Shown here: piece after piece, positions 19,423 through 33,230 of the stretch
Layout of the letters: each line of letters opens with the position of its first letter
How positions within the stretch are numbered: position 1 is the stretch's first letter
DNA from: Clostridiales bacterium
GTDB lineage: Bacteria > Bacillota_E > Sulfobacillia > Sulfobacillales > JAIMBI01
Direction of reading: 5' to 3'
Length of the DNA: 34,389 nt
NCBI GenBank assembly: GCA_027318915.1
Contig: DAHVOH010000033.1
Coordinates: 1-34,389, forward strand
Notes under the pieces: generated by a model
What the model saw: the letters and a program-made list of their open reading frames with translations, nothing else
Told to the model about the DNA's origin: nothing
Databases searched by the model: none
Translations under genes and position numbers: made by a program

Positions 19423-20532
19423 TCAGGTGACGTCGCCGATGTTGTGGATGGCGGTGGTCACCTGAACGTGGATGACGGCGTGCCGATACAGGGAGGGCCA
19501 TTGCGGACGAAGTTCCGGATGCCGATAGAGAAACGCCCGCCCAAACCCCACCGGGTCGACGCCCAGCGCCTGCAATTGCCTCAGCAGGGCGAGGGTCCCG
19601 CCGGCAATCCGCGCCGACACCTCCGATTCCAAGCGGGTCAGAACGCTGGATGTCGCCAGCCCTTCTCCCAGCACGTCGAGGACCCCCTGGGCTTGGATGG
19701 CCAGCGTGATGTGCAGCCGCCCGTGCGTCCACTGGACGGTGTAGCGGGTCGTGGCGCTGATGGCGCGGACCGAGACGGGGACGCCCTGGATGGGTGGCAG
19801 GTCCAAAGCGGCCTTGGACGTGTGCTGGGTGGCCAAACCGAAGAGGAGAGTGGCCGCCGGAGACAGCACGCGGACCAGCCGATCGCTACGGTAAAGGGCC
19901 GCCTGCCGGATGACGTAGCCGGTTTTCTGCGGAGTGATCAGGGGAAACCACAGGCTGGCGCCCGGGGTGATGCGGGCTTCCTCGGCCTGCCAGACGGTGC
20001 GGGCCAGGTTGACGGGCAGGCAGTGGGAGCAGGCAAACGCGGTCAGAAAATACAGGGCCGGCAGCTTGGATTCCTCGGGCGTGAAGCTCATGAATTGGGG
20101 TAGCGGCACGTTGGTCACGCCCATGTAGGCCGTCTTGCTGAAGGGGCCGAGCCGCGCCAGCGTCAGCAGGGTCATGTTGAGCTCCATCGGGGTGAGCTTC
20201 GTGGACAAAATCACCATGCCGGTCTGCCCGAGGTAGATGTCCCGGTCCGATGTGGTCTCGGCGTTGGAGAGCGCCGTCAGGACGGTGCCGCCGGTCCCGG
20301 TCAGGACATAGAACGACGGACCGGAGCCGCCGCCGCCCGCCGCATTGGTCAAGGACATCAGTCCGCTCGGACTGGGCGTCTCCAGGAAAACGGACACGCG
20401 CCCATGGGGCGCGGGCCCGACCCCCAGCATCAGGACGGGCGCTCGGGCGTCGATGGGTCGATTGTCCCAGCAGCCGCTGAGGACGGACGCCAGCAACAGC
20501 AGGCCGCACAGCAGACCCGCCCGACCCGTCAT
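19423..20532 (-). CDS. gerC: germinant receptor lipoprotein, Ger(x)C family
   Basis: 369 residues. The N-terminal lipoprotein signal peptide ends in the lipobox LLLLASVLSGC, and the mature protein begins CWDNRPID, the classic Ger(x)C start (CWDxxEI/ID). The rest shows the alternating pattern of the family, including LYRSDRLVR and a C-terminal block in which LQALGVDPVGFGRAFLYRHP matches the usual 'K.DifGfG..' region. It is anchored on the outer leaflet of the spore inner membrane. ATG 20532 overlaps the gerA stop (ATGA), so its translation is likely coupled to gerA. That coupling matters because gerA is split here. Confidence 0.9.
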   Translation of the reverse strand: MTGRAGLLCGLLLLASVLSGCWDNRPIDARAPVLMLGVGPAPHGRVSVFLETPSPSGLMSLTNAAGGGGSGPSFYVLTGTGGTVLTALSNAETTSDRDIYLGQTGMVILSTKLTPMELNMTLLTLARLGPFSKTAYMGVTNVPLPQFMSFTPEESKLPALYFLTAFACSHCLPVNLARTVWQAEEARITPGASLWFPLITPQKTGYVIRQAALYRSDRLVRVLSPAATLLFGLATQHTSKAALDLPPIQGVPVSVRAISATTRYTVQWTHGRLHITLAIQAQGVLDVLGEGLATSSVLTRLESEVSARIAGGTLALLRQLQALGVDPVGFGRAFLYRHPELRPQWPSLYRHAVIHVQVTTAIHNIGDVT

Positions 20533-20936
20533 CGCCGCACCTCGGCCTGCGCGTCGGCCAGGTGCGGGTCGCCGGTTTTCGGTGGCGGCGATGCCCGCTG
20601 CACGTCGACCGGTCGTGCGGTGCGCGGCCGCCGCAGGAACCGGAAGGGCGGCAGCTGGATCCAGGTGTCGCCGAGCTCCGATGGGTTGAGAGGGCCGATG
20701 GGGTACAGATAGGGAACGCCGAAACTTTCCAACGAGCAGAGGTAGGTCAACATCACCACCGTGACCAGCACCATGCCGAAGATGCCGAAGATGTAGGCGC
20801 CGACGATGAGCGCCCAAAACAGCCATCGCCATGCGGCGGTCAGCTCGAACGCCGGCGTGGTGAAGAGACCCAGCGCCGTGAGCGTGACCAGCACAATCAT
20901 CAGGTCGTCCACCACACCGGCTTTGACGACAGCCGT
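20529..20936 (-). CDS. gerA: gerA, 3' part (last 134 codons), separated from its start by the inserted element
   Basis: C-terminal part of a GerA-family germinant receptor A subunit, from the shared ACG (Thr) codon to the stop. It carries the last membrane helices and the hallmark LCSLESFGVPYLYPIGP, then a cytosolic tail of about 50 residues. The frame continues into element DNA up to an ATG at 20981 that has no evident ribosome-binding site. The first 459 codons lie at 31724-33099. Joining at the shared core gives VVVGT|AVVKAGVVDD, which agrees with the uninterrupted family pattern. The stop overlaps gerC by 4 bp. In the unexcised state this fragment has no start of its own that I can support. 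Confidence 0.9.
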   Translation of the reverse strand, partial: TAVVKAGVVDDLMIVLVTLTALGLFTTPAFELTAAWRWLFWALIVGAYIFGIFGMVLVTVVMLTYLCSLESFGVPYLYPIGPLNPSELGDTWIQLPPFRFLRRPRTARPVDVQRASPPPKTGDPHLADAQAEVRR

Positions 20937-20960
20937 GCCGGTTGCATCACTAACCACGCC
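20911..20960. other. left attachment junction of the gerA-intervening element
   Basis: A gerA-side half-site (20911-20934) and an element-side half-site (20937-20960) flank the GT at 20935-20936 (AC on the gerA coding strand). The element half ends in the arm CTAACCACGCC at 20950-20960, which is the inverted partner of GGCGTGTTTAG at the other end of the element. Each half-site is 25 bp counted from the centre, the size expected for a large serine recombinase. Confidence 0.8.
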
Positions 20961-21008
20961 GACAAAACCGCCGACAACCATGCTGCGGCCGGGACCGTGG
21001 ACGAACGG

Positions 21009-22721
21009 TTAGGAAGTGGCGCCGCCAGCCCAGCGGTCTATGGTGCTCCAGCGCACGGACGGACCACCGGCCTCGCCCAGGGCGTCGGGGGTGACCCGGT
21101 AGTACAGGGTAAAGCCTTCGCGGCGCAATTCCACGCGCTCCAGGATGTGCCGCAGCAGCTGGCGTTGTTGGCGCGGTTCGGCGGCCAAGAACCGGTCCCA
21201 CCATCGGGGAGCGGCGGCCAGGAAGGCATCGAGACGAGCGCGTTGAGCCTCCAGATTCTGCCGGGCGGCGTCGATCTGGGCCAACTCCGCTTCGGCCGCC
21301 GCCATGCGCGCCTGCGCGTCCCGGAGTTGGGCGGCCACAAAGTCTTCGGTGTAGGGGCTTTGGTCCGGGTGGAGCAGGAGGGCGTTGAGCCGTTGTGCCC
21401 ACGCGTCCTGCAGTTGGCGGGCCTCCTGCAGTTGGCGGCGCCAACGGTCGGCGCGAGCCGTCTGCTGCCACACCGTTTGTTCCGCATAACGCCGTGCTTC
21501 GGCTATGACGGCGGTGGTGTCCAGCGCGGTCAGTGTCCGCCGCACGGCGGCCAAAACCGCCGGCTCGACCTTGCGGCGCGAATACTGATGCTGACCCGGG
21601 CAGGCATGGGACCCCTTGGCGGCGGCGGTCTGACACTGGTAGTACAGGTGGCGATAGATCACCATCCCCTCCTTGCGACGGCGTCGTTCGTGATGTTGGT
21701 GGGTTTGGAATCCATTTCCGCATCCACCGCAACGGGCGAGCCCGGTGAGCAGGAGGGGTCCGCGATCCGCGCGGGCGGAGACGACGGGCGGCGCGGCGTC
21801 ACGCCGGTTGTAACTGGCCAAGCGGGCCATGGCCTGCTCCCATCGGTCTTGAGGAATGATGATGAGTGAGGGGACAACCGGGGACAGGATGACGCCGGAC
21901 AGGTCGTGCAGGCGCTTGACCATGGAGTGGTTGCGCTGGCGGGAGGTGTTCCCGTAACGCAGCCGACCGGTCAGAACAGGATTGCACATGATCCGGTACA
22001 TGGTCAGGATATGCCACTGGGCGCCGTGACGGGTGCGGGAGCCTTGAGCGCTTAGACGACGGATGATGCTGGGTCCGCCCAGGCCTTCATCCAGGTACCA
22101 CGCAAAGATTTGCCGGACGGTGGCCGCTTCGGCGTCGTCGACGACCAGCGGTACCGGGCTCGCGGTCTTGTCGAATCGGTATCCGTAGGGGGGACGGCCC
22201 CCGGACCACCACGGTCCCTGTTGCGCCAACTGCCGCATGCGCTCGGTCACTCGAATGGATGTGTTCACGGACTCGGTCTCGGCTTGCCACCCTTCGAGGA
22301 AGCGCAGCAATTTATCGTACTGGCCGTCGGTCTTGAGATCTTTGCCCCCGGGCTCGTCGGCCACGCTGACGACCTGGACGCCGGTTTTCTGCAACGCGGA
22401 GAGAATGAACGGGTACTCAAAGGCTTGACGGCTGAGACGGTCCGCCTTGAACACCAGGAGCATATCAAACTGACCCAAGCGCGCTTGGCGCAGGACGTCC
22501 TGGAGGATGTCGCGATCGGCGGTGGCGGTGCGGAATGCGGAGATCCCCTCTTCGGCAAACTCGGCCACCAGGGTCCAGCCGGGATGATCCGTCACGAAGG
22601 CGCGGATGGCGTTGCGTTGGAGGGGAAGGGACTCGTCGTCCGCGTCCCGGGTCACCGCCTGCCGCGCTGTGCTGACCCGGTACAGCGCGGCGCACCGGGC
22701 GGCGGGGGGAAGATTAGGCAC
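21009..22721 (-). CDS. large serine recombinase (candidate excisionase/integrase of the element)
   Basis: 570 residues. The N-terminal resolvase domain (about 8-150) has the catalytic serine S17 in ALYRVSTARQ and the conserved FKADRLSR with R95. The recombinase domain (about 170-300) follows, with GRPPYGYRFD and WHILTMYRIMCNPVLTG. A zinc ribbon is formed by C331, C334, C363 and C374, followed by a coiled-coil region (about 405-500). This is the layout of SpoIVCA, SprA and phage large serine integrases. The start is GTG 22721 after AAAGGAGGACC; the longer frame overlaps the upstream small ORF. The stop lies 72 bp from the crossover point. No terminator separates it from the gerA 3' part and gerC-gerB, so its transcript could continue into them. 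Confidence 0.95.
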   Translation of the reverse strand: MPNLPPAARCAALYRVSTARQAVTRDADDESLPLQRNAIRAFVTDHPGWTLVAEFAEEGISAFRTATADRDILQDVLRQARLGQFDMLLVFKADRLSRQAFEYPFILSALQKTGVQVVSVADEPGGKDLKTDGQYDKLLRFLEGWQAETESVNTSIRVTERMRQLAQQGPWWSGGRPPYGYRFDKTASPVPLVVDDAEAATVRQIFAWYLDEGLGGPSIIRRLSAQGSRTRHGAQWHILTMYRIMCNPVLTGRLRYGNTSRQRNHSMVKRLHDLSGVILSPVVPSLIIIPQDRWEQAMARLASYNRRDAAPPVVSARADRGPLLLTGLARCGGCGNGFQTHQHHERRRRKEGMVIYRHLYYQCQTAAAKGSHACPGQHQYSRRKVEPAVLAAVRRTLTALDTTAVIAEARRYAEQTVWQQTARADRWRRQLQEARQLQDAWAQRLNALLLHPDQSPYTEDFVAAQLRDAQARMAAAEAELAQIDAARQNLEAQRARLDAFLAAAPRWWDRFLAAEPRQQRQLLRHILERVELRREGFTLYYRVTPDALGEAGGPSVRWSTIDRWAGGATS

Positions 22722-22881
22722 GCGCCTGGTCCTCCTTTGCGAATTCCTCCACCAGCCATTTCGCAAGGGCTTGGACGAATTCCTGCGTCCGAAGGTGATG
22801 CTCGGGTCCGGTGACCGCTGGGAATACATGGGTGACCCGCGGATCCTCCGGATCCGGCACGATGAGTTCCGACGGGGACAC
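22714..22881 (-). CDS. 55-residue ORF overlapping the recombinase start
   Basis: It starts at GTG 22881 after AAAGAGGTGAG and ends TAA 22714, overlapping the recombinase GTG by 8 bp, so coupling is likely. The product begins MSPSELIVPDPEDP and ends in an amphipathic helix (TQEFVQALAKWLVEEF) with a charged tail. I do not recognise the family. Its size and position next to a serine recombinase make it a candidate recombination directionality factor or accessory protein; the SPbeta factor SprB is also a protein of under 60 residues. This is inference, with no sequence match claimed. Confidence 0.5.
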   Translation of the reverse strand: MSPSELIVPDPEDPRVTHVFPAVTGPEHHLRTQEFVQALAKWLVEEFAKEDQARA

Positions 22882-22934
22882 GATGCTCACCTCTTTGCGG
22901 GACGAAGAACCGTGGACGTCTCCGGGGGTGTAGC

Positions 22935-23760
22935 GTGTGTGAAAGCCGGGCGGGGTATACGTTTGGACGCCGACGGGCCACCAAACGGGCCCCGACGAGG
23001 AGCGCGGCGGACGCGGCAGCGGCCACGCCGGTGCCGGGAGCCGCAGTGAACGGCCGGGGCCGGTTCGCGGCGGCCCCGGCCGAGAAAGCCACGCAAGCGG
23101 AGGCGGCCGGGAAATCGGTCCCGCTCCCGCCGGCGGAGCCCGCGACCCCGGAAGCCCAGGCCCAGACGCACGTCGCCGACCCGGACCCGCGGATCATGCG
23201 TCACAGCGGCAAGGCCTTGATCCCAGGGGACAACGCGCAGGTCGCGGTGTATGCAGACTCCCCGATCATGGTCGCGGCGACGATGACGCAGCCGGCGGCT
23301 GACAGCCCTCACCTGTTGGGCGTGCTGGATCAAGTCCGGGCGAACAACGGGCGGACCCCGCGCGGCGTGTTAGCGGATGCGGGGTATGGGAGGGAGAAGA
23401 ATCGGGACGGGTCGGCGCGCGGCACATTCCCGCGGCGATCCCGCCGGAGAAGCTGACGCACCGGGTGTGGCGGACGGTCACGGCGCCACGGGGGCGGATT
23501 CCCAAGACCCAGCTGCGGAAGGACCGGATGCGGCGGGATCTGGGGACGAAACTCGGTGGAGCCGGCCATCGGGTATCTCAAGGCGGTCCAAGGTGGGCGC
23601 CCGTTCCTGTGGGGGAGTCTCGCGAAGGTCGAGCCGGAATGGCGGTTCCCCTGGGCCGTCGCGAACGTGGCGCGGATCCGGCCGCGGTGCTACAAAACCC
23701 TCACGGGGACTTCCTTGGTTGGGTGCGCGGGGCCACGCGTGAGCGCTGCTGCCCCAGTGA
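22935..23760 (+). pseudogene. decayed IS1182-type transposase
   Basis: Fragments of a DDE transposase are spread over several frames. The first, about 23040-23400, contains DPDPRIMRHSGK...GDNAQVAVYAD and ...VLADAGYG, matching the central part of IS1182-family transposases. A second frame, about 23420-23550, contains APRGRIPKTQLRKDRMRRDL. A third, about 23556-23690, contains VEPAIGYLKAVQGG followed by LAKVEPEW, corresponding to the family's EPVFGQIK...RGL.KV..EW. The N-terminal part is missing and at least two frameshifts or deletions break the gene, so it is inactive. No terminal inverted repeats were identified. Confidence 0.75.
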
Positions 23761-23871
23761 AAGATTGCTGACAAAGCGTCACGCTAAACAAGATAGTCAT
23801 CATGTTGACTCATCCATGGCCCGTGACGCGGTTGGGCAGGATACCGCTCGAGGAATCGAGCAGGATGAGGC

Positions 23872-24125
23872 CGCCGTCACCAGGAGCGTCTGGGAACGAG
23901 GATACGGGAGCAACGGGGTAGACATGCGGGATACATGAACCCCTTGTCCTGAGCCGATTCTAGCGACATCAGCAGCGGGGTAGACCCCTTGCCCGAGATC
24001 TTAAAAGTCTCGTGTCGGCGGTTCGATTCCACCCTGCGGGCCAACGTTTTTCAAGCCCTGCGTGGGTTGCAGGGTTTTTCGTTATGCGCGTTGGGTGGCC
24101 GCTTAGGACCGGCGTCACCACGAGG
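23872..24125 (+). repeat. repeat R1 with tRNA-like segment and terminator
   Basis: About 250 bp, similar by eye to R2 at 26367-26628. It starts and ends with the motif CGTCACCA(G/C)GAG. Inside is GGGTAGACCCCTTGCCCGAGATC, in part, then an anticodon-arm-like hairpin (GAGAT, loop CTTAAAA, GTCTC, about 23994-24010) and a T-arm with GGTTCGATTCCACC ending in GGGCCA. A terminator hairpin CCCTGC...GCAGGG with a T-run follows at about 24055-24079. The D-arm and acceptor do not pair properly, so this is a tRNA remnant, not a working tRNA gene. Confidence 0.65.
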
Positions 24126-24513
24126 GGGAAATCCGTATCGGAGCGTGGCGGTGAGAAGACGCGAAAGCCTTGCGGAGACTCAGTGTCAGGACCCTCGGAA
24201 GAGCTGGGGGGCGTCACCACGGCGTCACCAGGAGGAAGAGCCGAGGATATGACCAAGGCCGGCGGCTCCCGCTCCTGACGGTGTCATGCCGGTTAGCCCG
24301 TCTCCTGCAGTGGCTTAGCGCGGAAAGCGCCGTTCGGACAGGCAAAAGGCCCTCCGGGTGCGGGATATCGAAGTTGGAAAGACGCCCAAAACACCACGAA
24401 AGAGGGCGCTTCGTAGATGCATCGTACCACACTGTTTCCCCGCCACCGAATCCAGACCTTTTGTGGACAAGCTTGTGCCGTGACCGCTATTTCACCTTAG
24501 AGCACGGCACCGC
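24126..24513. other. gene-poor stretch
   Basis: No convincing gene. It holds two tandem copies of the CGTCACCA motif at about 24216-24238 and a loose inverted repeat (AAGACGCCC and GGGCGCTT) at about 24380-24412. Lower-GC sequence follows, up to the toxin-antitoxin promoter. Confidence 0.4.
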
Positions 24514-24559
24514 GTGACAGTTAGCCTGGTGCGCCATATAATTTAGGAAATCATGATTT
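24514..24559 (+). promoter_or_regulatory. promoter and operator of the first toxin-antitoxin pair
   Basis: GTGACA (24514-24519) and TATAAT (24537-24542) are 17 bp apart. A perfect 12-bp palindrome, AAATCATGATTT (24548-24559), lies over the expected transcription start. This is the usual position for antitoxin autorepression, probably by the AbrB-type antitoxin encoded next. Confidence 0.65.
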
Positions 24560-24590
24560 AAGACGCACAAGAGGCCAAGGAGGGGTGCGT

Positions 24591-24896
24591 GTGCTGACCA
24601 AGTTGACCCGGCACGGCCAAATCACCTTACCCAAAGCCGTGCGGGAGCGCCTGCACCTGGTGGAGGGTGATTACATCGACGTGGAGATCAGCGAGGACGA
24701 CCGCGGGATTGTGCTGCGGCCTCGTAAGATGGTGGCGATAGACCCCGACCAGGAGTGGTTTTGGACGCCCGCATGGCAACAGGCCGAACGGGCGGCCGAG
24801 GAGGACCTTTCCGCGGGGCGCGTGGTGCGTAGTCGGCCGGGGGAGCGGGCGTCTGAAACGCTACGACGGGCAGCGGAAACGGATGCCGATGAATGA
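24591..24896 (+). CDS. AbrB/SpoVT-type antitoxin
   Basis: 101 residues. The N-terminal swapped-hairpin DNA-binding domain (about 1-47) reads LTRHGQITLPKAVRERL then GDYIDVEI. The C-terminal half should bind and neutralise the toxin; it contains DQEWFWTPAWQQAE at 53-66, closely matched in the antitoxin at 25737. GTG 24591 is chosen over GTG 24585 because AAGGAGG (24577-24583) is then 7 bases away. The stop overlaps the toxin ATG by 4 bp. It is likely to repress its own promoter through the palindrome upstream. Confidence 0.85.
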   Translation: MLTKLTRHGQITLPKAVRERLHLVEGDYIDVEISEDDRGIVLRPRKMVAIDPDQEWFWTPAWQQAERAAEEDLSAGRVVRSRPGERASETLRRAAETDADE

Positions 24897-25153
24897 CGGT
24901 CGCGTTTACCCGGCGTTTTATTCGTGCCTATGAGCAGCTTCGACCCGAAGAGCAAGAGGCCATCTTGGAGGCGGTCGACCGGGTCCAGTCGGACCGCGAT
25001 CATCCCAGTCTACGGACCAAGAAGATTCAAGGACGACTAGACATCTGGGAAGTGCGGGCGTCGCGCGACTTGCGGCTGACCTGTCAGTTTGCCCCAGACC
25101 ACATTGTGTTTCGCGTGTGTGGGCACCACGATGAGGTCCTGCGACGACCGTGA
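24893..25153 (+). CDS. RelE/ParE-superfamily toxin
   Basis: 86 residues. It opens with VAFTRRFIRAYEQLRPEEQEA, in pieces typical of this fold: strand, then a helix pair with regular charged residues. It ends with DIWEVRASRDLRLTCQF and FRVCGHHDEVLRRP, the usual C-terminal beta-sheet with conserved basic residues and a final histidine-rich 'GHHDEVL' block. The predicted action is mRNA cleavage at the ribosome, or gyrase inhibition for ParE-like members; the sequence alone does not decide. The ATG overlaps the antitoxin stop (ATGA). Confidence 0.85.
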   Translation: MTVAFTRRFIRAYEQLRPEEQEAILEAVDRVQSDRDHPSLRTKKIQGRLDIWEVRASRDLRLTCQFAPDHIVFRVCGHHDEVLRRP

Positions 25154-25292
25154 CGGACTCAGCCCCGACAGGCTGAGGTTGGTCTCGTGGCGTCCGTAAA
25201 GGCGATGGGGTGGTCAGCGGCAATGTGGCGGGTTGGAGGCTGGCGTCCCCACGGCGCCACCAGGAGCGGCGTGTATCATGCCCTCCCCGTAG

Positions 25293-25315
25293 TATAATGA
25301 GTAAGAATTCCTTAC
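25293..25315 (+). promoter_or_regulatory. -10 box and operator of the orphan AbrB gene
   Basis: TATAAT at 25293-25298, with no good -35. It is followed by the inverted repeat GTAAG-AATTC-CTTAC (25301-25315) over the expected start site, and then GGGAGGGTGG and the ATG at 25329. Confidence 0.55.
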
Positions 25316-25328
25316 CGGGAGGGTGGGT

Positions 25329-25607
25329 ATGGATACGGCCCGAGTGACCACGAAAGGGCAAATCACGATCCCCCAGCGAGTCCGGGATCAGATGGGCATC
25401 CAAACCGGAGACGTGCTCGCCTTTGTTAGGCAGGAGGATGGGACGGTGGTTGTCCAAAAACTTCGTCTGCCGGATGCGGGTGACGTTCAGGCGCGTTTCG
25501 CACCCACGACCACAGCCGAAACTATCACGGAAGAAGATGTGGCGGGGTGGGCCAAGGAAGTGCGGGCTCCACAGTTCACGGAACGGGATCCCGGCCGGTT
25601 GAAGTGA
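25329..25607 (+). CDS. AbrB-family antitoxin-like protein without an adjacent toxin
   Basis: 92 residues. The N-terminal SpoVT/AbrB domain reads ARVTTKGQITIPQRVRDQMG then GDVLAFV. The C-terminal part, including ETITEEDVAGWAKEVRAPQF, resembles the toxin-binding tail of VapB/MazE-like antitoxins. ATG 25329 follows GGGAGGGTGG. No toxin gene follows: 25608-25736 contains no usable frame. It is thus an orphan antitoxin or stand-alone regulator. An operator-like palindrome upstream suggests autoregulation. Confidence 0.8.
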   Translation: MDTARVTTKGQITIPQRVRDQMGIQTGDVLAFVRQEDGTVVVQKLRLPDAGDVQARFAPTTTAETITEEDVAGWAKEVRAPQFTERDPGRLK

Positions 25608-25736
25608 TCGCGTGAAGAATGAATGCTGTGGGGTGCGCCGACCTAGTGACTGAGATGCGGGTGTTAAGTCAACGCGCTCAGGATCAAGCGAGGGTGGGGA
25701 TGCCACGACGTCAGTGTCGTAAACGGGGGTGATGAT

Positions 25737-25991
25737 ATGGCCGTCAACAAAGATACGCTCCACCGGCTCATTGACCGTCTCGACGAGCCTACAGATATTG
25801 AGACCGTGTATGCCGTGGTGAAATCGCTGGTCGAGCACGACGATCAAGCCTGGTATTGGACCGAACCCTGGCAACAGGGTGAACAAGAGGCCGATGCGGA
25901 CAAAATCGCCGGGCGCATTAGCCGACGTTACACCTCGGCAACGGAGTTCATGAAGGATCTCACGCAGGAACCCCCGGACGAACCCCGGTGA
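25737..25991 (+). CDS. antitoxin of the second RelE/ParE-type pair
   Basis: 84 residues with no AbrB domain. The N-terminal third (LHRLIDRLDEPTDIETVYAVVKSLV, in part) is predicted helical. The C-terminal half carries DQAWYWTEPWQQGE at 36-49, nearly the same as in the first antitoxin, followed by EADADKIAGRISRRYTSATEF. The shared half probably binds related toxins. ATG 25737 has GGGGGTGAT upstream. The TGA overlaps the toxin GTG by 4 bp (GTGA). Confidence 0.8.
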   Translation: MAVNKDTLHRLIDRLDEPTDIETVYAVVKSLVEHDDQAWYWTEPWQQGEQEADADKIAGRISRRYTSATEFMKDLTQEPPDEPR

Positions 25992-26263
25992 AGCTCCAGC
26001 GGACTGCTCGTTTCACCAAACAGTTTCAACGCTTGTCCAAGGACGATCCTCGCCTCCTTAGACAGGTGGAGAAGACGATCCAGTACCTTTTGCGATTTCC
26101 ACCCGCGCATCCTGCCTTACGGATGAAGCGGATTCAAGGGACGCCAGGCATCTATGAATGCTCGGTGAATATGGACATTCGGGTGACCTTCGAGTTTCTG
26201 GATCCCGAGACAATTTTGTTACGCAACATCGATCACCACGACCGGGCGCTCCAGCGTTCTTAA
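25988..26263 (+). CDS. RelE/ParE-superfamily toxin, second copy
   Basis: 91 residues, GTG start overlapping the antitoxin stop. It opens LQRTARFTKQFQRLSKDDPRL and ends with the pattern GIYECSVNMDIRVTFEF then LLRNIDHHDRALQ, parallel to DIWEVRASRDLRLTCQF and CGHHDEVLRRP of the toxin at 24893. The two toxins are clearly related but diverged. The predicted role is an mRNA interferase or related growth inhibitor held inactive by the upstream antitoxin. Confidence 0.85.
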   Translation: MKLQRTARFTKQFQRLSKDDPRLLRQVEKTIQYLLRFPPAHPALRMKRIQGTPGIYECSVNMDIRVTFEFLDPETILLRNIDHHDRALQRS

Positions 26264-26366
26264 TAGATTGGGCCGGGGGTGCGATTGTGGTACCCGGGAC
26301 CTGAGGCGGGTGGCCGATTATTGGGTGCTTGGACGGGTATCTCCACGACGTGATGGATGTTCGCCG

Positions 26367-26628
26367 TCACCTTGGCGTCACCAGGAGCGTGTCGATATGG
26401 GGAGATGGGAGCAACGTCGTAGGCACTCGGGATTCAGGAAACTCTCGTCCCAAGCGGATTCCAGCGACAGCAGCATCAGGGTAGACCCCTTGCCCGAGAT
26501 CTGAAAATCCTCGTGTCTGCGGTTCGATTCCGCCCTGCGGCACCACTATTTTTGAGGCCCCGCTTAGGTTGCAGGGTTTTTTCATAATGTGCGTCTGGTG
26601 GCTGTTTAGGGTCGGCGTCACCAGGAGC
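26367..26628 (+). repeat. repeat R2 with tRNA-Phe-like segment and terminator
   Basis: Second copy of the ~250-bp repeat (R1 at 23872-24125), again bounded by GGCGTCACCAGGAGC on both sides. The tRNA-like part has an anticodon-loop CTGAAAA (GAA, Phe) at about 26501-26507, then GTGTCTGCGGTTCGATTCCG, in part, a T-arm, and GCGGCACCA at 26537-26545. An imperfect terminator hairpin (CCCCGC...GCAGGG) with six T follows at about 26558-26582. The 5' acceptor candidate GCGACAG matches the 3' strand at only 5 of 7 positions and the D-arm does not close, so it is degenerate. Confidence 0.65.
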
Positions 26629-26819
26629 CAGAATTCAATAGGGAACCGGCGCCAAGCGGTCAAATCTACACCGGCATTGGTAGATCACATGGCGGGTGTT
26701 TGGCCCTCCGAACGGAATGCTGTGCGCTCAGCGGAGGCGGGGCCCCGCATTCCGGGCGGGCAGGGCGGGAGGCGGCAGGTGGTGCCACCGTTTCCGGGGG
26801 CGGACGAGGAGCGGGCGGT
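26629..26819. other. intergenic stretch without a gene
   Basis: About 190 bases between R2 and the RHH-VapC promoter. Nothing convincing is seen. Confidence 0.4.
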
Positions 26820-26848
26820 TTGACAACGGGATATCTCCCGGATATAAT
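26820..26848 (+). promoter_or_regulatory. consensus promoter with embedded operator for the RHH-VapC pair
   Basis: A perfect TTGACA (26820-26825) and a perfect TATAAT (26843-26848) are spaced 17 bp. Between them lies the inverted repeat CGGGA-TATC-TCCCG (26827-26840), a natural target for the RHH antitoxin. The first gene's ATG is at 26856, about where transcription should begin, so the mRNA is probably leaderless. Confidence 0.85.
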
Positions 26849-26855
26849 TCACGTC

Positions 26856-27110
26856 ATGACAAAGGTGCTGGTGTCAATCCCCCAAGACCTGCTGGACCGC
26901 GTGGACCGGGAGGCCCAGCGGCGAGGTCTCACGCGTAGCGCCCTGTTGCAGCTGGCCGCACGTCGTGAGCTTGGCTGGCCCGACACGGCGGCGATTGACG
27001 CCGCGCTCGATCGTGCCCGGACGGCACTGGCGGGTGCCGGGAGCTTCGAGTCGGTCGATCTAATCCGCAAGGGGCGGGAGGCACGGGATGTCCGTGATCG
27101 ACGTCGTTAG
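26856..27110 (+). CDS. ribbon-helix-helix antitoxin (VapB-like)
   Basis: 84 residues. The N-terminal RHH fold is MTKVLVSIPQDLLDRVD (strand, then helix) followed by AQRRGLTRSALLQLAAR (second helix). The C-terminal half should wrap the toxin. The ATG lies about 8 bp after the -10 box with no ribosome-binding site, consistent with leaderless translation. The 3' end overlaps the toxin gene by 23 bp. The protein probably represses its promoter through the inverted repeat between -35 and -10. Confidence 0.85.
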   Translation: MTKVLVSIPQDLLDRVDREAQRRGLTRSALLQLAARRELGWPDTAAIDAALDRARTALAGAGSFESVDLIRKGREARDVRDRRR

Positions 27111-27531
27111 CGACGCGAATATTGCGCTGAAGTGGTTTCACGAGGAGGGCGAGCAGGACGTCGAGCCCGCCCGTCAGTTGTTGGAGCACCACCGCGCCGG
27201 GCGGGTCGTGTTGCACGTGCTGGACCTGACCTTCTACGAGGTGGGAAATGCGCTGATGCGGGGGCGTGCTCAGGCAACCGCCGAGCAGACCGCCATCGTG
27301 CTGGGCGCGTTGCGAGAGATCTGTCTCACGATGCATGCTGACGATGAAATTCTCCGGGACGCGGCCGACTTGGTCGCCGAGCACGGCCTGACATTCTGTG
27401 ACGCTGCTTACGCCGCCGTGGCTCGCCGTCTCGATGCGCCGCTGGCGACCCTTGACAAGCTGCTGCTCGGCACCGGGCTCGGTATTCGTCCCGACAAGCT
27501 GCTTGCCCAGCTCAACGAGGCAGACGTCTGA
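27088..27531 (+). CDS. vapC: PIN-domain toxin (VapC family)
   Basis: 147 residues, a Mg2+-dependent ribonuclease of the PIN fold. The four acidic active-site residues are visible: D9 (VVSDANIALKWF), E51 (TFYEVGNAL), D105 (LTFCDAAYAAVA) and D123 (LATLDKLL). The length is usual for VapC. ATG 27088 lies inside the end of the antitoxin gene, and translation is probably coupled. Family members typically cleave tRNA or rRNA; the target is unknown here. Confidence 0.9.
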   Translation: MSVIDVVSDANIALKWFHEEGEQDVEPARQLLEHHRAGRVVLHVLDLTFYEVGNALMRGRAQATAEQTAIVLGALREICLTMHADDEILRDAADLVAEHGLTFCDAAYAAVARRLDAPLATLDKLLLGTGLGIRPDKLLAQLNEADV

Positions 27532-27879
27532 CGAACCCCATCGCGCCGGGGCCGAAGGGGGTCAGCTAAGGGCAGATGTAAAAGCTGAGAGGTCCGAGCG
27601 ACGAGGGATTCACTCCGCACGCCAGCGAGGAGGCTCAGCCTCCTGGAGGAACAAGATCCCACCCTCCCAGCGGATTCAGCAGCCGATCGAGCCGCTGTGA
27701 CTCCAGGGCCGCGAGACCCCGAGCCCTTTCAGTCGGCCTCTGGCGACTTCTCGCCGCTCCCGCCCCCCGGGACGTGCTCCCCGCGTCCGGTCACGGAGAG
27801 GGATGCCTGCGGGCTCCCCACCCGGGGCCTCGACGACGCCTCCACCGACGCGACCAGCACCCGGGCGCTGATCCCGTCG
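27532..27879. other. gene-poor stretch after vapC
   Basis: No supported gene. A near-perfect palindrome, AGGAGGCT-C-AGCCTCCT, lies at 27628-27644, with no T-run. The sequence leads into a decayed transposase and may be insertion-sequence debris. Confidence 0.4.
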
Positions 27880-28140
27880 CAGGCCAGCCAACTGCCGGAG
27901 ACGCGGGGGACCACTTTTGAGGCGGTTCTGGCACGGGATCTCAGCGGGTTCGGGGGAAAGCACTGGCGTCTCGACGCGGTGGTTGAGCCGATGCGGCGCA
28001 CCGGCCGGATCCGGGACGGGGTGCTCGCCGCCTGGGGCATCGGGCGGGACGGCCAACGGGTATGGCGCCCTCTCGCCTTGGGCAACACGGAGAGCGCCTG
28101 CTCGGAAAAGGCGGCCATGGTGGCCGGACGCCCGGCCTGA
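27880..28140 (+). pseudogene. fragment of an IS256/mutator-type transposase
   Basis: The frame contains RLDAVVEPMRRTGRIRDGVL, in part, followed by AAWGIGRDGQRVWRPLALGN and ES. These match the central block of mutator-family transposases (D...EPMRR.G...VL.AWGI..DG...L.LALGNKES). The frame stops after about 85 residues of similarity, and no N-terminal DNA-binding part or C-terminal catalytic glutamate region is present. It is a remnant. Confidence 0.6.
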
Positions 28141-28327
28141 ACGCGTATCATGAGTCTGGTAAACTTTTCCCCGCACCATGGGAGTCTCGACACCGCCCGC
28201 GTACCGTCAGGGAGGGTGTTTCCCCGTCTTTGAGGGTCGACTCAAATCTCATCAAACCCAAGCGGGGCAATGGTGTGCGCGATCTGCCGAAGGGGGACCG
28301 TCGAGTGACCCCGATGAGGTCCCGTCG

Positions 28328-29281
28328 ATGTTGTGGGGGTCGTGTGTGGCAGGGGGGGTAGGGGTGTTATCCTGGAGCGGGATTCAAACGGCCGAGGTCC
28401 TGGCCCGGAGCCGGGCGCCGCGGTTTCGTCCGGAGTGGCGAAGCACCCTCATCGGATACTTCGGATTGACCCCCGGGATGCGCGTGCTGGAGGTGGGCTG
28501 TGGTCCCGGAACCCTGGCGCCCTATCTGGCCGACGGGATTCAGCCTGGAGGTCAGGTGGTGGGTGTCGACCTCGATGAGGATTTTGTGCGCCGGGCCCGG
28601 GAGGCGGCGGAGATGAGCGGCGGGCGTAGCCGCGTCGCGTATCAGGTGGGGGACGCGTATGCGCTGCCGTTTGCCGGCGGGGCTTTCGACGCGGCCGTAA
28701 GTTACACGGGGATCGGGGTCCTCACCGATCCGGAGCGCGCCGTGCGGGAGATGCGGCGGGTGGTGCGACCAGGGGGCGTCGTGGCTGTGGCCGAAGCGGT
28801 TTCGGGTCCGTGGGGTTTTCGTTTCGATGGATCCGACAGCCTGCCGGATGCCTCACCTTATCCGGACGCGACGCGGTACTGGGCGCTCTGCCGGCGCCTG
28901 CTCGCCGGAGTGGCGGCCGGGCGCCCTGCGGGCATCGGGAGCAGCCGGTGGCCGCCCGCGGCCATGCCGGCCCTGCTGGCGGCCATCGGCCTCCGAGAGA
29001 TCGTCATCAACGCCTGGGGGTACGTCACGACCGCCGACGACGGCCGTGAGGACGGCATGGGGATTGAAGGACGGATCGCTGGGGAGAGTGACCTGGAGAC
29101 CCTGGCCGCGGACATCAAGGCGGATCCGGCCCGTCGCCATCTCTTGTCGGAGGAGGAGTGGACCGAGTGGGAGCGGGTGTCGGCTGCCCGCCGCCGGTGG
29201 CGGGAGAGCCATCTCACATACTCCTACGAAGCGGGGCTATCAGTGGTGGTGCGCGGGATTAGCGGAAACGGGCTGCCATGA
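28328..29281 (+). CDS. class I SAM-dependent methyltransferase
   Basis: 317 residues from ATG 28328 (GAGGT 7 bases upstream); a GTG at 28364 after a G-rich run is a possible alternative. The Rossmann core begins with motif I VLEVGCGPGT at 53-62, then GGQVVGVDLD with the adenosyl-binding acidic residue D81, then VGDAYALPFAGGAFDAAVS and a post-motif MRRVVRPGGVVAVAE. The C-terminal ~120 residues are variable and probably hold the substrate site. It looks intact and may be cargo of the element. Small-molecule methylation of the UbiE/Methyltransf_11 type is the best guess; the substrate is unknown. Confidence 0.85.
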   Translation: MLWGSCVAGGVGVLSWSGIQTAEVLARSRAPRFRPEWRSTLIGYFGLTPGMRVLEVGCGPGTLAPYLADGIQPGGQVVGVDLDEDFVRRAREAAEMSGGRSRVAYQVGDAYALPFAGGAFDAAVSYTGIGVLTDPERAVREMRRVVRPGGVVAVAEAVSGPWGFRFDGSDSLPDASPYPDATRYWALCRRLLAGVAAGRPAGIGSSRWPPAAMPALLAAIGLREIVINAWGYVTTADDGREDGMGIEGRIAGESDLETLAADIKADPARRHLLSEEEWTEWERVSAARRRWRESHLTYSYEAGLSVVVRGISGNGLP

Positions 29282-29464
29282 GTCCCAGATCTGCGGAAAG
29301 CAGGGCGACCGTCGCCCGGATGTGGGCGGTGAGGGAGGCGAGCTGATCTGAAATCGGGCCGGGTCCGCGTCCCTGGGAAGATGTGCACGGGAGCTTGGGG
29401 CCTTGCCTCGGTCCTGCGGGTTCGGATGCCGTCCGGAGGTCGGGACGACGTCTTGGCGGCGCTT
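29282..29464. other. intergenic stretch
   Basis: Nothing recognisable between the methyltransferase and the convergent winged-helix remnant. Confidence 0.3.
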
Positions 29465-29968
29465 CTACACCGGTATCCGCCGCCCCGCGCGCGACGCCCA
29501 ATAGGGAGCGCTCCGGCAAAGCGAGCGGACCGGTCGTTGGGTGTGGCCTGCCGCATGAGAGAAAACCGAGACGGGCGGAGGCATACGCGGCCTCATCGGC
29601 CTCCCGGGCGCGGTGTCAGGCTTGCGACGACGGCACTGGCCCCCTTCGTCGGGCACCGCGTGGGTTCTAGGACCACGGGGTTCACCCCCCAGACGTTCGC
29701 GGTGATCCCGCTCGACTCTTTCGATCAGATAACCGCACGCCTGCAGGTTCTGCAGAGCCATGTCGACGGCATCTCGACCATGTGGCCCCCGATGCCCGAG
29801 AGCGCGCCGCGCAATAACCGGGCCGTCCGGCAGGCTCAGCACAGACGCGAGCAGATTCCGGACTGTCCCGGTGAGACGGCCGTCGGTGGCGGCGTCGCGC
29901 CGGATCATGCGGTACGGGCTGCCGAGATTGTGGGCGCTGCGACGGATGCGAGCGGTGGACAGGCGCAT
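29465..29968 (-). pseudogene. degraded winged-helix, replication-type protein
   Basis: The frame from ATG 29968 (AAAGGACG upstream) encodes about 95 residues that look real. SPYRMIRRDAATDGRLTG, TVRNLLASVLSLPDG and GRDAVDMALQNLQACGYLI match the winged-helix pattern 'dgrLs..arglLayLLSLPd...GrdaV..aL..L...GYL' seen in plasmid and phage replication proteins. Beyond residue ~95 the sequence becomes low-complexity Arg/Pro, as expected after a frameshift, so the true C-terminus is probably lost. If functional it would bind DNA. It hints that the element descends from a replicating plasmid or phage. Confidence 0.4.
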
Positions 29969-29995
29969 GGGCCGCTCGTCCTTTCTGATCGGGAC

Positions 29996-30034
29996 AAAAA
30001 AACGCCGAGGTCGGGGGTGAGACTCCGGCTCGGC
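29996..30034 (-). terminator. rho-independent terminator upstream of the winged-helix gene
   Basis: On the - strand GCCGAG (30034-30029) pairs with CTCGGC (30009-30004), with further pairing possible inside. It is followed by seven T (30002-29996), only about 28 bases before the winged-helix ATG. It either ends a transcript coming from the right or acts as an attenuator for the gene. Confidence 0.65.
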
Positions 30035-30476
30035 GGAAACAATCTTGGCGGACCCACGAAACCTCTGTCTCAGAGAGGCGTGACGGATCCGCCATCGGAG
30101 GGTCATCTCCGACGCGAACACCGTGGTGACTCGACGGCCCCCCATATCCCGTGGGGCATCGGGTCCTGACGCACCCCGGGAGCTCTTGGCGCCCGGACGG
30201 CCGGGGCGGCCGCGCCGAGAATGGCTCCGGCCCGGTGCGGACAGCTGGCGCTGACGGAGCGCGGGCTTTGGAACCCGCAGCGATCTCGGGCCACACACCT
30301 TGTGCTCGCCCTCATCGACCCCCGGTCGACTCCCGGGGCCCATTGCGGAAAGATTTGGGCCGGCCGGTCGCCGGTGGACGGTCACGGTGGTCGGCCCCCA
30401 CGTTCCTGGGGGCGGCCGGCCGCTCCGTGATATCCTAACGGCGGAGTGCCGCCGGACGCCGACAGGGGGGAGAAGC
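30035..30476. other. gene-poor stretch
   Basis: About 440 bases without a supported gene, between the terminator and the PPOX gene. No promoter with both boxes was found for the latter. Confidence 0.35.
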
Positions 30477-31100
30477 ATGGAGGCGCAACGACCCGGCAGC
30501 GCGGGGGAACACGCGCTGCAGTCACGGTACGGGACAACAGCCCGAGCGTTGGCGTTTTATGATAATCAGATGCTGGATCACCTCAACCGGGCCATGCAGA
30601 CCTTTATTGGCCGGATGGAGATGATGTGGATCGGCACGGCGGACGCCCGGGGGGAGTGCGACGTGTCCTTTCGGGCCGGTCCCCGGGGTTTTGTGCGGGT
30701 GTTGGACGCGGGTACGCTGCTATGGCCGGAGTATCGCGGCAACGGGGTGTTGGCCAGTGCCGGCAACCTTGTGGAGAATCCCCATGTGGGCTTGATGTTC
30801 CTCGATTTCTTCGACAGCACCGTGGGGCTGCACGTCAATGGACGGGCGCGTCTCGTGGACAACGGCGAGCTTCAGGCGAATCCCGAGACCGCTCGGTGGG
30901 TGGCCGACGCGCTGGCCGGGCGGAGCGGGCGGCAGCCGGAACGCTGGGTGTGGGTCACGGTGGAGGAGGCGTACATCCATTGTGCCAAGCATGTGCCGCG
31001 ACTTGTCAAACGCCCCAAGATCCGAGCCTGGGGCAGCGACGACGAGCACGCGAAGGGCGGAGACTACTTCCGTGTACGCGCCCATCGCCGCTCGGAGTAA
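30477..31100 (+). CDS. PPOX-fold flavin-binding protein
   Basis: 207 residues. The split-barrel pyridoxamine-phosphate-oxidase-like fold is suggested by AMQTFIGRMEMMWIGTADARGE followed in pieces by CDVSFRAGPRGFVRVLDAGTL, NGVLASAGNLVENPHVGLMFLDF and GLHVNGRARLVD. The C-terminal block EAYIHCAKHVPRLVK matches the family's 'C..AyfhCpK..pr' region. Such proteins bind FMN or F420 and act as small-molecule oxidoreductases. ATG 30477 has AGGGGGGAG upstream. It is intact and probably cargo. The specific reaction is unknown. Confidence 0.85.
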   Translation: MEAQRPGSAGEHALQSRYGTTARALAFYDNQMLDHLNRAMQTFIGRMEMMWIGTADARGECDVSFRAGPRGFVRVLDAGTLLWPEYRGNGVLASAGNLVENPHVGLMFLDFFDSTVGLHVNGRARLVDNGELQANPETARWVADALAGRSGRQPERWVWVTVEEAYIHCAKHVPRLVKRPKIRAWGSDDEHAKGGDYFRVRAHRRSE

Positions 31101-31699
31101 GTGGCATTCCGGGAGGCGGGAATGGGGGACGTCAAACCCCCATAGTTGATGGCCGGTGCCTGTGTCGGCGGAGATCGCATGGCGGCGAATCGAGACCACG
31201 GTGTGGACTTCGGCTTTCATACCGCTGGGGCGAGGCTTCGCGGGGATTTGCCCGCACGCGGCCCGTGGTCCGTTACCGAGGACGCCGTCTTGCACAAGCC
31301 GCCGTGGCCGCCACCGAGACAACTTGTTCGGGTGGCCGGGCGTGCGGCTTCGCGGGCCGTGCGCTCAGCCATGAAAATAAAGCCTGGGGGCCAAACGCGC
31401 ATGCGGGGGTTCGCCGCGACAGGGACTGCAAGCGACCAAGACGGCCGCTGACCTGCTCGTGTTCGTGAAGTCGCGGACCGGCCCGCTCTGATCCGCCGAC
31501 GGCGAGACGGGCTCTGTCGGGCCACGTCGCCCGATCGGGCCAGGCGCCCGATACCGGCGTTCCTCTTGCGCGGCGACAGAAGCTGACAGGGGCGTCTCGT
31601 CCTTTCTCAAGAGGATAAGAGGTCCATCCGGGGGATCCGTGGACCGGGGCAGGGACTCGCGCTTGTGTGGCGAGTGGGCGAGGCGGTCTCTCAATGATC
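31101..31699. other. right end of the element, no supported gene
   Basis: About 600 bases. On the - strand the unexcised gerA 5' frame stays open through here to a stop at 31273 because of high GC, but this part shows no protein-like pattern. A short CTCGTCCTTTCT stretch recurs here (about 31593-31604) and at 29975-29986. Nothing else is recognised. Confidence 0.4.
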
Positions 31700-31749
31700 G
31701 GCGTGTTTAGCATAACGATGGGCGTACCCACCACGACGGCGCCGACGGT
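31700..31749. other. right attachment junction of the gerA-intervening element
   Basis: The element-side half (31700-31723) begins with the arm GGCGTGTTTAG (31700-31710). The gerA side follows the GT at 31724-31725. Joined to the left end, the two element halves give a 50-bp site with arms of 11 bp (10 of 11 complementary), 25 bp on each side of the central dinucleotide. Confidence 0.8.
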
Positions 31750-33099
31750 GCCCAAGGTGGTGGCCAGTTCTTTGGGCAACCGGTTGGCCGCCTCCCGCAG
31801 GATTTCGATGATGATCCACATGATGATGACCTCCATCACGGGGGGAAACGGAATGCCTTCCCGCGAGCCGGCGATGGTGAGAATGAGCTTCGTGGGAGCC
31901 AGGTCCGGGTCCACCGAGGTGAGCGCGATGTAGGCGGGAAGCAGGTAAAGCCCGAGCACCAGCCCGATCAAACGGATCATCCTCACCAGCGTGGCCTCCC
32001 AGAACGAGAAGGCGTAGTCCTGGGTGGTTTGATAGAATTCCATGAGTGTCGCGGGGACCAGGGAGACGAACGGGTCGTTGTCCACCAGAATGGCCACCTT
32101 GCCCCGCAGCAAGTCGCGGCACACCCAATCCACCCGCTCGGTCAGACGCGCCAGGGGAAACAGGCTCAAGCGGCGGTCCACGATACGCTCGACAATTTGA
32201 TTGGTCTCCTGCACTTCGTCCACCCGCACTTGGCTCACCCGCTGCTTGACGGTCGCCACCAGCGCCGGATTGGTGAGTCCTTCGATATGGGCGACCAGTA
32301 CGGTGGTCTTGGTGTAGCCACCGACGGTCAGGGTGTCGAACTTGAGCCAGCTGGTGCGGATGTGCCGGCGGATTTGGTTCATGTGCGTCAGCAGGATGTC
32401 GTTGAAAGCTTCCTGGGGTCCCTTGATGGAAGGTTCCGAGTCGGCGCGCGCGATAGCCCGGGCGGCAAACTTGACGGTATCCAGCACCAGCACGGTGGCG
32501 CTGCCATCCACGAACAGCAGCGTGGAGCCATAGGTTAGCTGGTCCAACAGCTTGGACCAGTGCTGGGTCGTGGTGACGTGGCCGATGGCGATGACCGCTT
32601 CCTGTACGTGGCGGTGGATGGCGGCCGGGTCGGTTGTTTGGGATGCCGCGAAGTCGTAGAGTTCGCTGACGCGCACCGTGTCTTGGTCCACCATAATGTT
32701 GTCCACCATGCCGTCGGCAAAGGCCAGCAGGGCGGGCCACGCCAGGGTGCGCCCGATCGTGAAGCGGCGCAGGATGATGTCCGGCGACTGGCCCACCGTG
32801 TGCTTCAGCCGGGTGTAGGCGGCCTCGACGCGACCGCCGAAACGGTCCAAGTGGCCGCCCGTGTCCTGGCTGTCGGCGATCATGGCGTCGAGCCGATGCT
32901 TCAATGATGACGCTTCCTGCACCAACGCCCGGACCGCCTCGGGATCCCCGCTCTGAACGCGGCGCAGCACAGACTGGGATTGGGTGATGGGCGCGACCGC
33001 GACGGCGGACGGGCTGGGCGGAGACGGCCGGCGGTCATCCAGGTGATTGGGGACGGAGGGACGGCGTGGGTGCGAGCGTCGGTCAAATGGCCACACCAT
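31724..33099 (-). CDS. gerA: gerA, 5' part (first 459 codons), interrupted by the element
   Basis: N-terminal part of the germinant receptor A subunit: a charged, proline-rich cytosolic start, then the GerA N-terminal domain (about 60-370), then membrane helices from about residue 375. Family patterns include GQSPDIILRRFTIG, ILVDNDPFVSLVPATLMEFYQ, EGIPFPPVMEVIIMWIIIE and the break at RLPKELATTLGTVGAVVVGT, in part. ATG 33099 is preceded by GGGGGTG; TTG 33129 is a weaker alternative. In the unexcised state the frame runs on to 31273, giving a 608-residue chimera without the C-terminal helices. A clear forespore promoter was not found; a weak GCATG/CACATTG pair lies upstream. Joined to 20529-20936 the protein is 593 residues. 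Confidence 0.92.
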
Positions 33100-33230
33100 A
33101 TCACCCCCGGGCAAGGCTCCTCTGCTCAATGTGACCGAGGAAGGCCGGTTTCATGCTCGGGTCCGGGCGCGGTTCAGCCGCGTCCGCCGGTCGGGATGGG
33201 GCGACGGAGGCGCGCGCGTCCGGCCGGGAT

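What the first reader, a model, noticed from the sequence alone, without database searches (positions are those of the whole stretch)
20529..33099. A germinant-receptor gene (gerA) is split by a 10.8-kb skin-like element and would be restored in frame by excision
The two gerA parts are on the same strand, in the right order, and complementary: 459 codons at 31724-33099 and 134 codons at 20529-20936. Both breakpoints fall in a shared Thr codon ACG (ggtACG on the 5' side, ggcACG on the 3' side). Counting from each end shows both halves are in phase there. The joined peptide VVVGT|AVVKAGVVDD follows the normal GerA family pattern, with nothing missing. Sporulation genes interrupted by serine-recombinase elements are known (sigK by skin, spsM by SPbeta, and others such as spoVFB and gerE), but I do not recall a gerA-type receptor gene as target. 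If excision is regulated, the ability of the spore to germinate is gated by DNA rearrangement.
Basis: partly seen in the sequence, partly recalled or inferred. Interest (0 to 1): 0.96.

Follow-up and report, generated by a model that had tools for sequence, protein, structure and literature searches.

The report
Mobile element splits spore-germination gene gerA
In an unnamed spore-forming bacterium a germination-sensor gene (gerA) is cut in two by a 10.8-kb mobile element that carries its own recombinase gene; that recombinase is likely made inside the developing spore, where precise removal of the element would make the gene whole again, unlike the best-studied elements of this kind, which act in the mother cell.

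Summary
gerA is split by a 10,789-bp element. In 33 of 33 uninterrupted loci the halves abut with no gap or duplication, and the orthologous gerB-gerC-gerA/holA locus of a relative lacks the element. The circle junction is a symmetrical serine-integrase-type site (16 of 25 arm positions match, P=0.0002). A 570-aa recombinase, preceded by a small overlapping ORF, lies beside the 3' half.

Beyond the finding: recombinases of the same clade split tepA (7 genomes), lonB (2, possibly 3) and yetF/DUF421 (2). Characterised homologues of all four targets are forespore genes. Forespore (sigma-G/F) promoter-like sites precede gerA and the recombinase operon here, and are enriched before the clade's recombinases (5 of 14 relatives against 0.55 in shuffles; 1 of 23 outside the clade). 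In one genome pair both tepA halves are under strong purifying selection although split (dN/dS about 0.01).

So the likely mechanism is excision in the forespore, not the mother cell as in skin. Excision itself is untested, relatives often carry several gerA genes, and some clade members sit in other genes. Verdict: new variant of a known kind.

The parts
31723..33099 (-). gerA 5' half, 459 codons up to the shared Thr codon
   Evidence: Pfam GerA 2-364, E 1.8e-104; junction coordinates
20529..20936 (-). gerA 3' half, from the shared Thr codon to the stop
   Evidence: Pfam GerA 360-465, E 5.6e-27
20937..31725 (.). the intervening element, 10,789 bp (one copy of the core counted)
   Evidence: absent from the orthologous locus L062
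31694..31725 (.). element end inside the gerA 5' junction: core AC and 30-nt arm
   Evidence: inverted match to the other end, 16 of 25
20935..20966 (.). element end inside the gerA 3' junction: 30-nt arm and core AC
21009..22721 (-). large serine recombinase, 570 aa
   Evidence: Resolvase, Recombinase and zinc-ribbon domains (on the longer frame); phrog_95 integrase; start by comparison with P0001
22714..22881 (-). 55-aa ORF overlapping the recombinase start; candidate directionality factor (inferred)
   Evidence: translation; similar small ORFs before related recombinases, weak alignment with a nearly invariant F-P; no Pfam or PHROG match
22931..22960 (-). forespore (sigma-G/F) promoter-like site before the small ORF and recombinase, one mismatch
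33127..33156 (-). forespore promoter-like site before gerA, conserved in relatives, two mismatches to the strict motif
19423..20532 (-). gerC, overlapping the gerA stop
   Evidence: both GerAC Pfam domains (on the longer frame); start
18238..19365 (-). gerB (spore permease)
   Evidence: PF03845, E 1.6e-28
24585..25153 (+). cargo: MazE-like antitoxin and Gp49/RelE-like toxin pair
25323..25607 (+). cargo: MazE-like antitoxin
25737..26263 (+). cargo: unknown 84-aa ORF and ParE-like toxin
26700..27531 (+). cargo: ribbon-helix-helix and PIN-domain (VapBC-like) pair
28178..29281 (+). cargo: methyltransferase-domain ORF
30300..31100 (+). cargo: PNPOx-like ORF
   Evidence: PF01243, E 1.5e-17

Best explanation
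gerA is interrupted by a 10.8-kb element that carries its own large serine recombinase gene, and the element is predicted to excise in the developing spore, driven by a likely forespore promoter in front of the recombinase operon, which would rebuild gerA and rejoin the gerA-gerC-gerB operon to its promoter. Steps: (1) during growth the element sits in gerA, which is presumably not needed then (inferred). (2) In the forespore, sigma-G or sigma-F would transcribe the small ORF and the recombinase (predicted from the promoter-like site). (3) The small ORF product would act as directionality factor, so that the two end sites recombine at the shared AC (inferred). (4) The circle would leave and the restored operon, behind its own sigma-G-like promoter, would make a whole receptor (predicted). 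(5) Because the forespore genome is inherited, the element would have to reintegrate after germination, or excise in only some forespores, to persist (inferred). Shown here: the split, the symmetrical att-like structure, an open recombinase gene, open gerA halves, gerC and gerB, uninterrupted orthologues, a recombinase clade that repeatedly lies in genes of forespore type, and purifying selection on split tepA halves in one genome pair.
For: Halves abut in 33 of 33 uninterrupted loci; element-free orthologous operon in L062; attP-like symmetry, P=0.0002; second gerA 5' half ending at the same site, P0096, not sister to the window in the tree. Same clade in tepA, 7 genomes, both halves found in 5; lonB in G021 and G007; DUF421 in G010, both halves, and G032, 5' half only. 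Forespore promoter-like sites: the relaxed motif occurs twice in the window, before gerA and before the recombinase operon, 0.3 expected; conserved in 14 of 32 gerA upstream regions, shuffle mean 0.09; perfect before the L034 and L035 recombinases; 5 of 14 clade relatives against 0.55 expected and 1 of 23 non-clade. Split tepA of G529/G311: dN/dS 0.011 (3' half) and about 0.014 (5' half), with recombinase dS 0.69 near tepA dS 0.77. Homologues are forespore genes in PMC3789822, PMC10126465 and, by a cited title, PMC5506225.
Against: No excised form was seen: no rejoined gerA of this species among 121 protein hits (only the best-sharing candidates were scored and 120 were listed). Of 18 clade places, six are not in an identified forespore gene, and nearly identical recombinases (98.7%, L038/L039) lie in different genes. 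Motif and interval were partly chosen after seeing sequences; 9 of 14 clade relatives have two or more mismatches, and the two later-found relatives with one mismatch are not significant singly (P 0.115 and 0.2). The gerA site has two mismatches to the strict motif. In G184/G261 the element is younger than the tepA divergence. Forespore excision would endanger the element's inheritance. Relatives often carry several GerA genes.
Confidence: 0.6

Rival explanations
1. Passive insertion: an ordinary serine-integrase island used gerA as a harmless landing site; the gene is inactive and dispensable, other receptors do the work, and excision is rare and unregulated.
For: Many relatives have several GerA matches; the cargo is toxin-antitoxin-like genes and no sporulation gene was recognised; some clade members sit in a subtilase and other genes.
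Against: Neither gerA half has decayed; forespore promoter-like site on the recombinase operon; repeated use of forespore-type genes by the clade; purifying selection on both split tepA halves in one genome pair.
Confidence: 0.28
2. True skin-like behaviour: excision confined to the mother cell during sporulation.
For: Best-studied elements behave so (PMC4191935, PMC5025042, passages).
Against: Germinant receptors are made in the forespore (PMC3789822, passage); the promoter-like sites before gerA and the recombinase are of forespore type.
Confidence: 0.05
3. The two gerA halves are permanently separate and assemble as two polypeptides; no excision is needed.
For: The 3' half has an in-frame ATG at 20981; both halves are open.
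Against: In 33 of 33 uninterrupted loci fetched gerA is contiguous; the 3' half and gerC-gerB are cut off from the gerA promoter by 10.8 kb; the recombinase gene is intact.
Confidence: 0.04
4. Assembly artefact joining an unrelated contig into gerA.
For: No whole genome is held for the window.
Against: The same truncated halves and recombinase recur in other database entries (P0209, P0089, P0001); the two ends fit each other as recombination sites.
Confidence: 0.02

Closest known systems
skin element in sigK (B. subtilis, C. difficile)
   Same: Element with a serine recombinase splits a sporulation gene; the recombinase gene lies in the element; excision rebuilds the gene (PMC10747680 and PMC5025042, passages)
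   Different: Prophage-like, sigK is a mother-cell gene and excision is mother-cell specific; here the target is a forespore-type gene, the promoter-like site is of forespore type, and excision is untested
SPbeta prophage in spsM
   Same: Nearest solved structure of a relative of this recombinase is SPbeta YokA (E 1.8e-8); precise excision rebuilds spsM (PMC4191935, passages)
   Different: SPbeta is a large active prophage, excised in the mother cell and kept in the spore; here none of the ten element proteins searched has a phage structural match
gin element in gerE (B. cereus ATCC10987)
   Same: Non-prophage element with serine recombinases in a sporulation gene; needs a small extra factor, GirX (PMC5595907, abstract and passages)
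   Different: Three recombinases, 28.6 kb, gerE is a mother-cell regulator
vfbin in spoVFB and yin in yabG
   Same: Elements inside sporulation genes (PMC10747680, passages)
   Different: yabG is SigK-regulated; neither is a germinant receptor
fdxN element of cyanobacteria (XisF)
   Same: XisF is among the nearest NCBIfam models (E 8.2e-18, far below its cut-off; CcrB and CcrC score better but are also far below theirs); excision during cell differentiation (recalled)
   Different: Other host, target and terminally differentiated cell (recalled)

Membership tests
Sporulation gene-intervening elements (skin, SPbeta, gin, vfbin, yin) | Located inside a sporulation or spore gene, splitting it | tested here: met
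   gerA halves
Sporulation gene-intervening elements (skin, SPbeta, gin, vfbin, yin) | Carries a serine recombinase gene | tested here: met
Sporulation gene-intervening elements (skin, SPbeta, gin, vfbin, yin) | End sites with a short shared core and inverted arms; removal restores the frame | tested here: met
   junction matches the family
Sporulation gene-intervening elements (skin, SPbeta, gin, vfbin, yin) | Circularises by excision during sporulation | not testable with these tools
   needs reads or cultures
Sporulation gene-intervening elements (skin, SPbeta, gin, vfbin, yin) | Has a recombination directionality factor | tested here: inconclusive
   55-aa ORF with weakly similar ORFs in relatives; function inferred
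skin proper | Mother-cell expression of the excision genes | tested here: inconclusive
   promoter-like site is of forespore type; no expression data
Prophage | Phage structural, packaging or lysis genes | tested here: not met
   10 element proteins against PHROGs: integrase and toxin-antitoxin or regulator-type matches only; the remaining small ORFs were not searched there
Large serine recombinases | Resolvase, recombinase and zinc-ribbon domains | tested here: met
GerA germinant receptor A subunit | GerA domain complete when the halves are joined, with gerB and gerC beside it | tested here: met
   Pfam 2-364 plus 360-465; gerC, gerB

The most novel reading that the evidence does not exclude
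A clade of serine-recombinase elements has specialised on genes of the developing spore itself (gerA, tepA, lonB, yetF). Its recombinase is switched on by a forespore sigma factor, so the element leaves the very chromosome that will be inherited, arms the spore for germination and outgrowth, and must jump back in afterwards: a reversible DNA switch in the inherited line that gates germination, the mirror image of skin.
Probability: 0.42. Interest if true: 0.94.

Novelty: new variant of a known kind. Interest (0 to 1): 0.85.

Why it matters
SPbeta, and skin in the studies seen, rebuild their genes in the mother cell, a cell that dies, which explains how such an element can leave without being lost. 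Elements in forespore genes break that rule. If they excise in the forespore, spores would carry chromosomes different from those of the growing cells, and reintegration would be part of the life cycle. It would also mean that a germination receptor, which decides when a spore wakes, can be put under the control of a mobile element. The database names seen for close recombinase relatives (Sulfobacillus acidophilus, Thermanaeromonas, Neomoorella) suggest that the DUF421 and tepA cases include cultured species, so the idea could be tested directly.

Tried and rejected
Rejected: assembly artefact (other database entries hold the same truncated halves); prophage (no structural match among the ten proteins searched); the argument that in-frame halves alone prove function (precise excision always restores the frame). 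Suspiciously short GerA frames in G029, G030, G035, G038 and G008 were fetched: the sequence runs on across the site in every one, with a contig end or broken frame elsewhere, so none is a split. P0210 and P0211, short 3' halves, may simply start at contig ends and are not counted. P0174 and P0177 end about three codons beyond the site and were not followed. G003 has a lonB 3' half at the same site, but another contig of that assembly carries lonB running across the site, so it is not counted firmly. Broken recombinase fragments L042 (G008) and L053 (G022) were left out of the 18 clade places; one search counted them among its 20 controls, one search dropped them. L040 (36%, 32.7%) is also outside the 18; its neighbour gives RNase_H_2 just below cut-off. 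tRNA and Rfam searches of the window found nothing. The viral-contig scan with the recombinase found nothing. The strict sigma-G motif fits the gerA site with two mismatches only; its support is conservation. lonB upstream regions: none perfect, 6 of 28 with at most one mismatch, 0.93 expected. DUF421 upstream regions: 3 of 7 perfect, 0.01 expected; two of the seven loci (L071, L095) are one place. Structure prediction was not used. Ten literature searches listed, as far as titles and abstract beginnings show, no paper on gerA, lonB, tepA or yetF split by such an element; most subscription papers are outside that library. Passages (not whole texts) were read of PMC5595907, PMC10747680, PMC4191935, PMC5025042, PMC10126465, PMC5506225, PMC5061766 and PMC3789822.
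Full report
WHAT IS THERE. The window (mostly 65-72% G+C, down to 57% inside the element) comes from an unnamed Bacillota: the single genome-contig hit for the gerA 5' half is a Bacillota metagenome bin (L001, 85% over residues 380-458), and protein relatives include Sulfobacillus species. On the minus strand run gerA, gerC and gerB, divergent from holA. gerA is cut after GTVGAVVVGT by a 10,789-bp element. In 33 of 33 uninterrupted loci (L001-L033, L001 and L003 being one place) the two halves abut exactly. In G007 (L062) the orthologous locus has the same order, gerB-gerC-gerA with holA divergent, and no element.

THE ELEMENT. Its ends share only GG[T/C]ACG. Joined as a circle they give two arms around AC that match at 16 of 25 positions; 0.0185% of 200,000 random pairs do as well. 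This is what a large-serine-integrase attP looks like (established knowledge). About 70 bases inside the 3' junction ends a 570-aa serine recombinase (21009-22721), preceded by an overlapping 55-aa ORF (22714-22881). Cargo: toxin-antitoxin-like pairs, a methyltransferase-domain ORF, a PNPOx-like ORF and a transposase remnant. None of ten element proteins searched has a phage structural match.

NOT A ONE-OFF. P0096 (480 aa) is a gerA 5' half, 61% identical, that reads VVVGTPIVILTTP where the window reads VVVGTPIVMLNTP. In a tree of the 5' half it is not sister to the window, so gerA was probably hit at this site at least twice. Its DNA could not be fetched.

THE CLADE AND ITS TARGETS. I read the genes beside related recombinases. 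Of 18 places at about 35% identity or more (window, L034-L039, L041, L083, L084, L139-L145, L152), twelve lie in four genes: gerA (window), DUF421/yetF (L034, L035), lonB (L037, L039), tepA (L139-L145). The other six: a subtilase (L084, PF00082), a CpaF-like and an epimerase-like gene named by eye without a Pfam hit (L036, L038), and three unidentified (L041, L083, L152). TepA was recognised by eye; its forms share one site and are not independent. Counted by distinct target gene it is four of forespore type against three other named ones. The locus lists were capped, and one search drew 398 genomes from a larger group. G010 carries the DUF421 halves about 140 kb apart, in frame, with symmetrical arms; in G032 only the 5' half was found. 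G335 carries the tepA halves 26 kb apart with the recombinase beside the 3' half on the gene's strand, the architecture of the window. Both tepA halves were found in 5 of the 7 genomes; G010 has an uninterrupted tepA. G021 has both lonB halves 13.4 kb apart; the 5' half matches NCBIfam spore_lonB 2-143, and the G007 3' half matches 131-529. Among 46 genomes, 3 (G003, G007, G021) have a lonB 3' half alone at this site, G003 ambiguously.

FORESPORE LINK IN PRINT (passages). [quoted passage not shown] subtilis, and tepA is listed among sigma-F genes of C. difficile (PMC3789822). yetF, ydfS and homologues are forespore genes (PMC10126465). tepA is repressed by SpoVT (PMC5061766). [quoted passage not shown] The motif GHATR-N17..19-CATDHTA used below is recalled; PMC3789822 says that sigma-F and sigma-G motifs resemble each other and those of B. 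subtilis.

PROMOTER TESTS. The two window sites were first noticed by eye. A relaxed motif run on the whole window, both strands, then matched only these two: 33156 before gerA and 22960 before the small ORF; 0.3 expected. Two other relaxed motifs tried in the same call missed them. The gerA site recurs in 14 of 32 gerA upstream regions, the window included; shuffle mean 0.09, maximum 2. With the strict motif the recombinase site has one mismatch and is one of three such sites in the window. L034 and L035 fit perfectly, L037 with one mismatch; in all, 4 of 9 clade members against 1 of 20 controls have at most one. In 566 kb of relatives' DNA (both strands) there are 7 perfect sites, one listed twice; four of the six distinct ones stand before the recombinase operon and before DUF421 in G010 and G032. 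In a fixed interval, 5 of 14 clade relatives have at most one mismatch (shuffle mean 0.55, maximum 3 in 300), against 1 of 23 recombinases below 35% identity (0.67 expected); the interval was chosen. Of the seven relatives found after the motif was fixed (L139-L144, L152), two reach one mismatch, neither significant alone (P 0.115 and 0.2).

SELECTION. For tepA in G529 and G311, dN/dS is 0.011 for the 3' half and about 0.014 for the 5' half (dN 0.017, dS 1.19). Their recombinases have dS 0.69, close to 0.77 for the tepA 3' half, as expected if the gene was inherited in the split state and is still selected. In G184 and G261 the recombinase (dS 0.20) is much closer than tepA (0.89) and the neighbouring uppP (1.02), so that element spread more recently. 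No such test was possible for gerA. Its halves are open and of ordinary divergence: 3'/5' identity ratio 0.917 for the window, 0.898 to 1.100 for the 23 others.

MECHANISM. Shown: split, att-like structure, open recombinase, recurrence, promoter-like sites, selection on tepA. Inferred: forespore expression, role of the small ORF, excision, reintegration. A receptor of the spore must be made in the forespore, so rebuilding gerA in the mother cell would not help. SPbeta avoids loss by excising only in the mother cell (PMC4191935). A forespore element needs another way to persist: reintegration or incomplete excision.

CERTAINTY. I put 0.6 on functional forespore excision and 0.28 on a passive insertion. 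The window's genome is not held, so its other receptors could not be counted, and no excised form was found.

Noticed in passing
window 23875-24133 and 26376-26636: A pair of direct repeats of about 250 bp, 76-79% identical, flanks the toxin-antitoxin-like genes of the element; ARAGORN and Rfam find no RNA there.
   Followed up: no
window 22935-23456: Weak DDE transposase match (E 1e-4, below cut-off) overlapping the region upstream of the recombinase operon, probably a remnant.
   Followed up: no
P0174 and P0177 (proteins, 452 aa each): Two other GerA proteins stop about three codons beyond the window's split site with unrelated tails; possibly gerA split by a different element.
   Followed up: no
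L038 (G005) and L039 (G007): Recombinases 98.7% identical lie in different genes, an epimerase-like one and lonB: recent movement between targets, or a chimeric contig.
   Followed up: partly
G010:C1 559023-699378 (L054, L079, L093, L101): The halves of DUF421 lie about 140 kb apart in a single-contig genome; gene content of this large element was not examined.
   Followed up: partly
G008:C1 2167524-2169688 (L042, L097): A broken recombinase of this clade lies about 1 kb from an uninterrupted DUF421 gene: perhaps the relic of an element that decayed beside its target.
   Followed up: no
G529:C1 (L152, L165, L171, L178): tepA halves lie 407 kb apart on the same strand of a single contig, with a second clade recombinase between them.
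   Followed up: no
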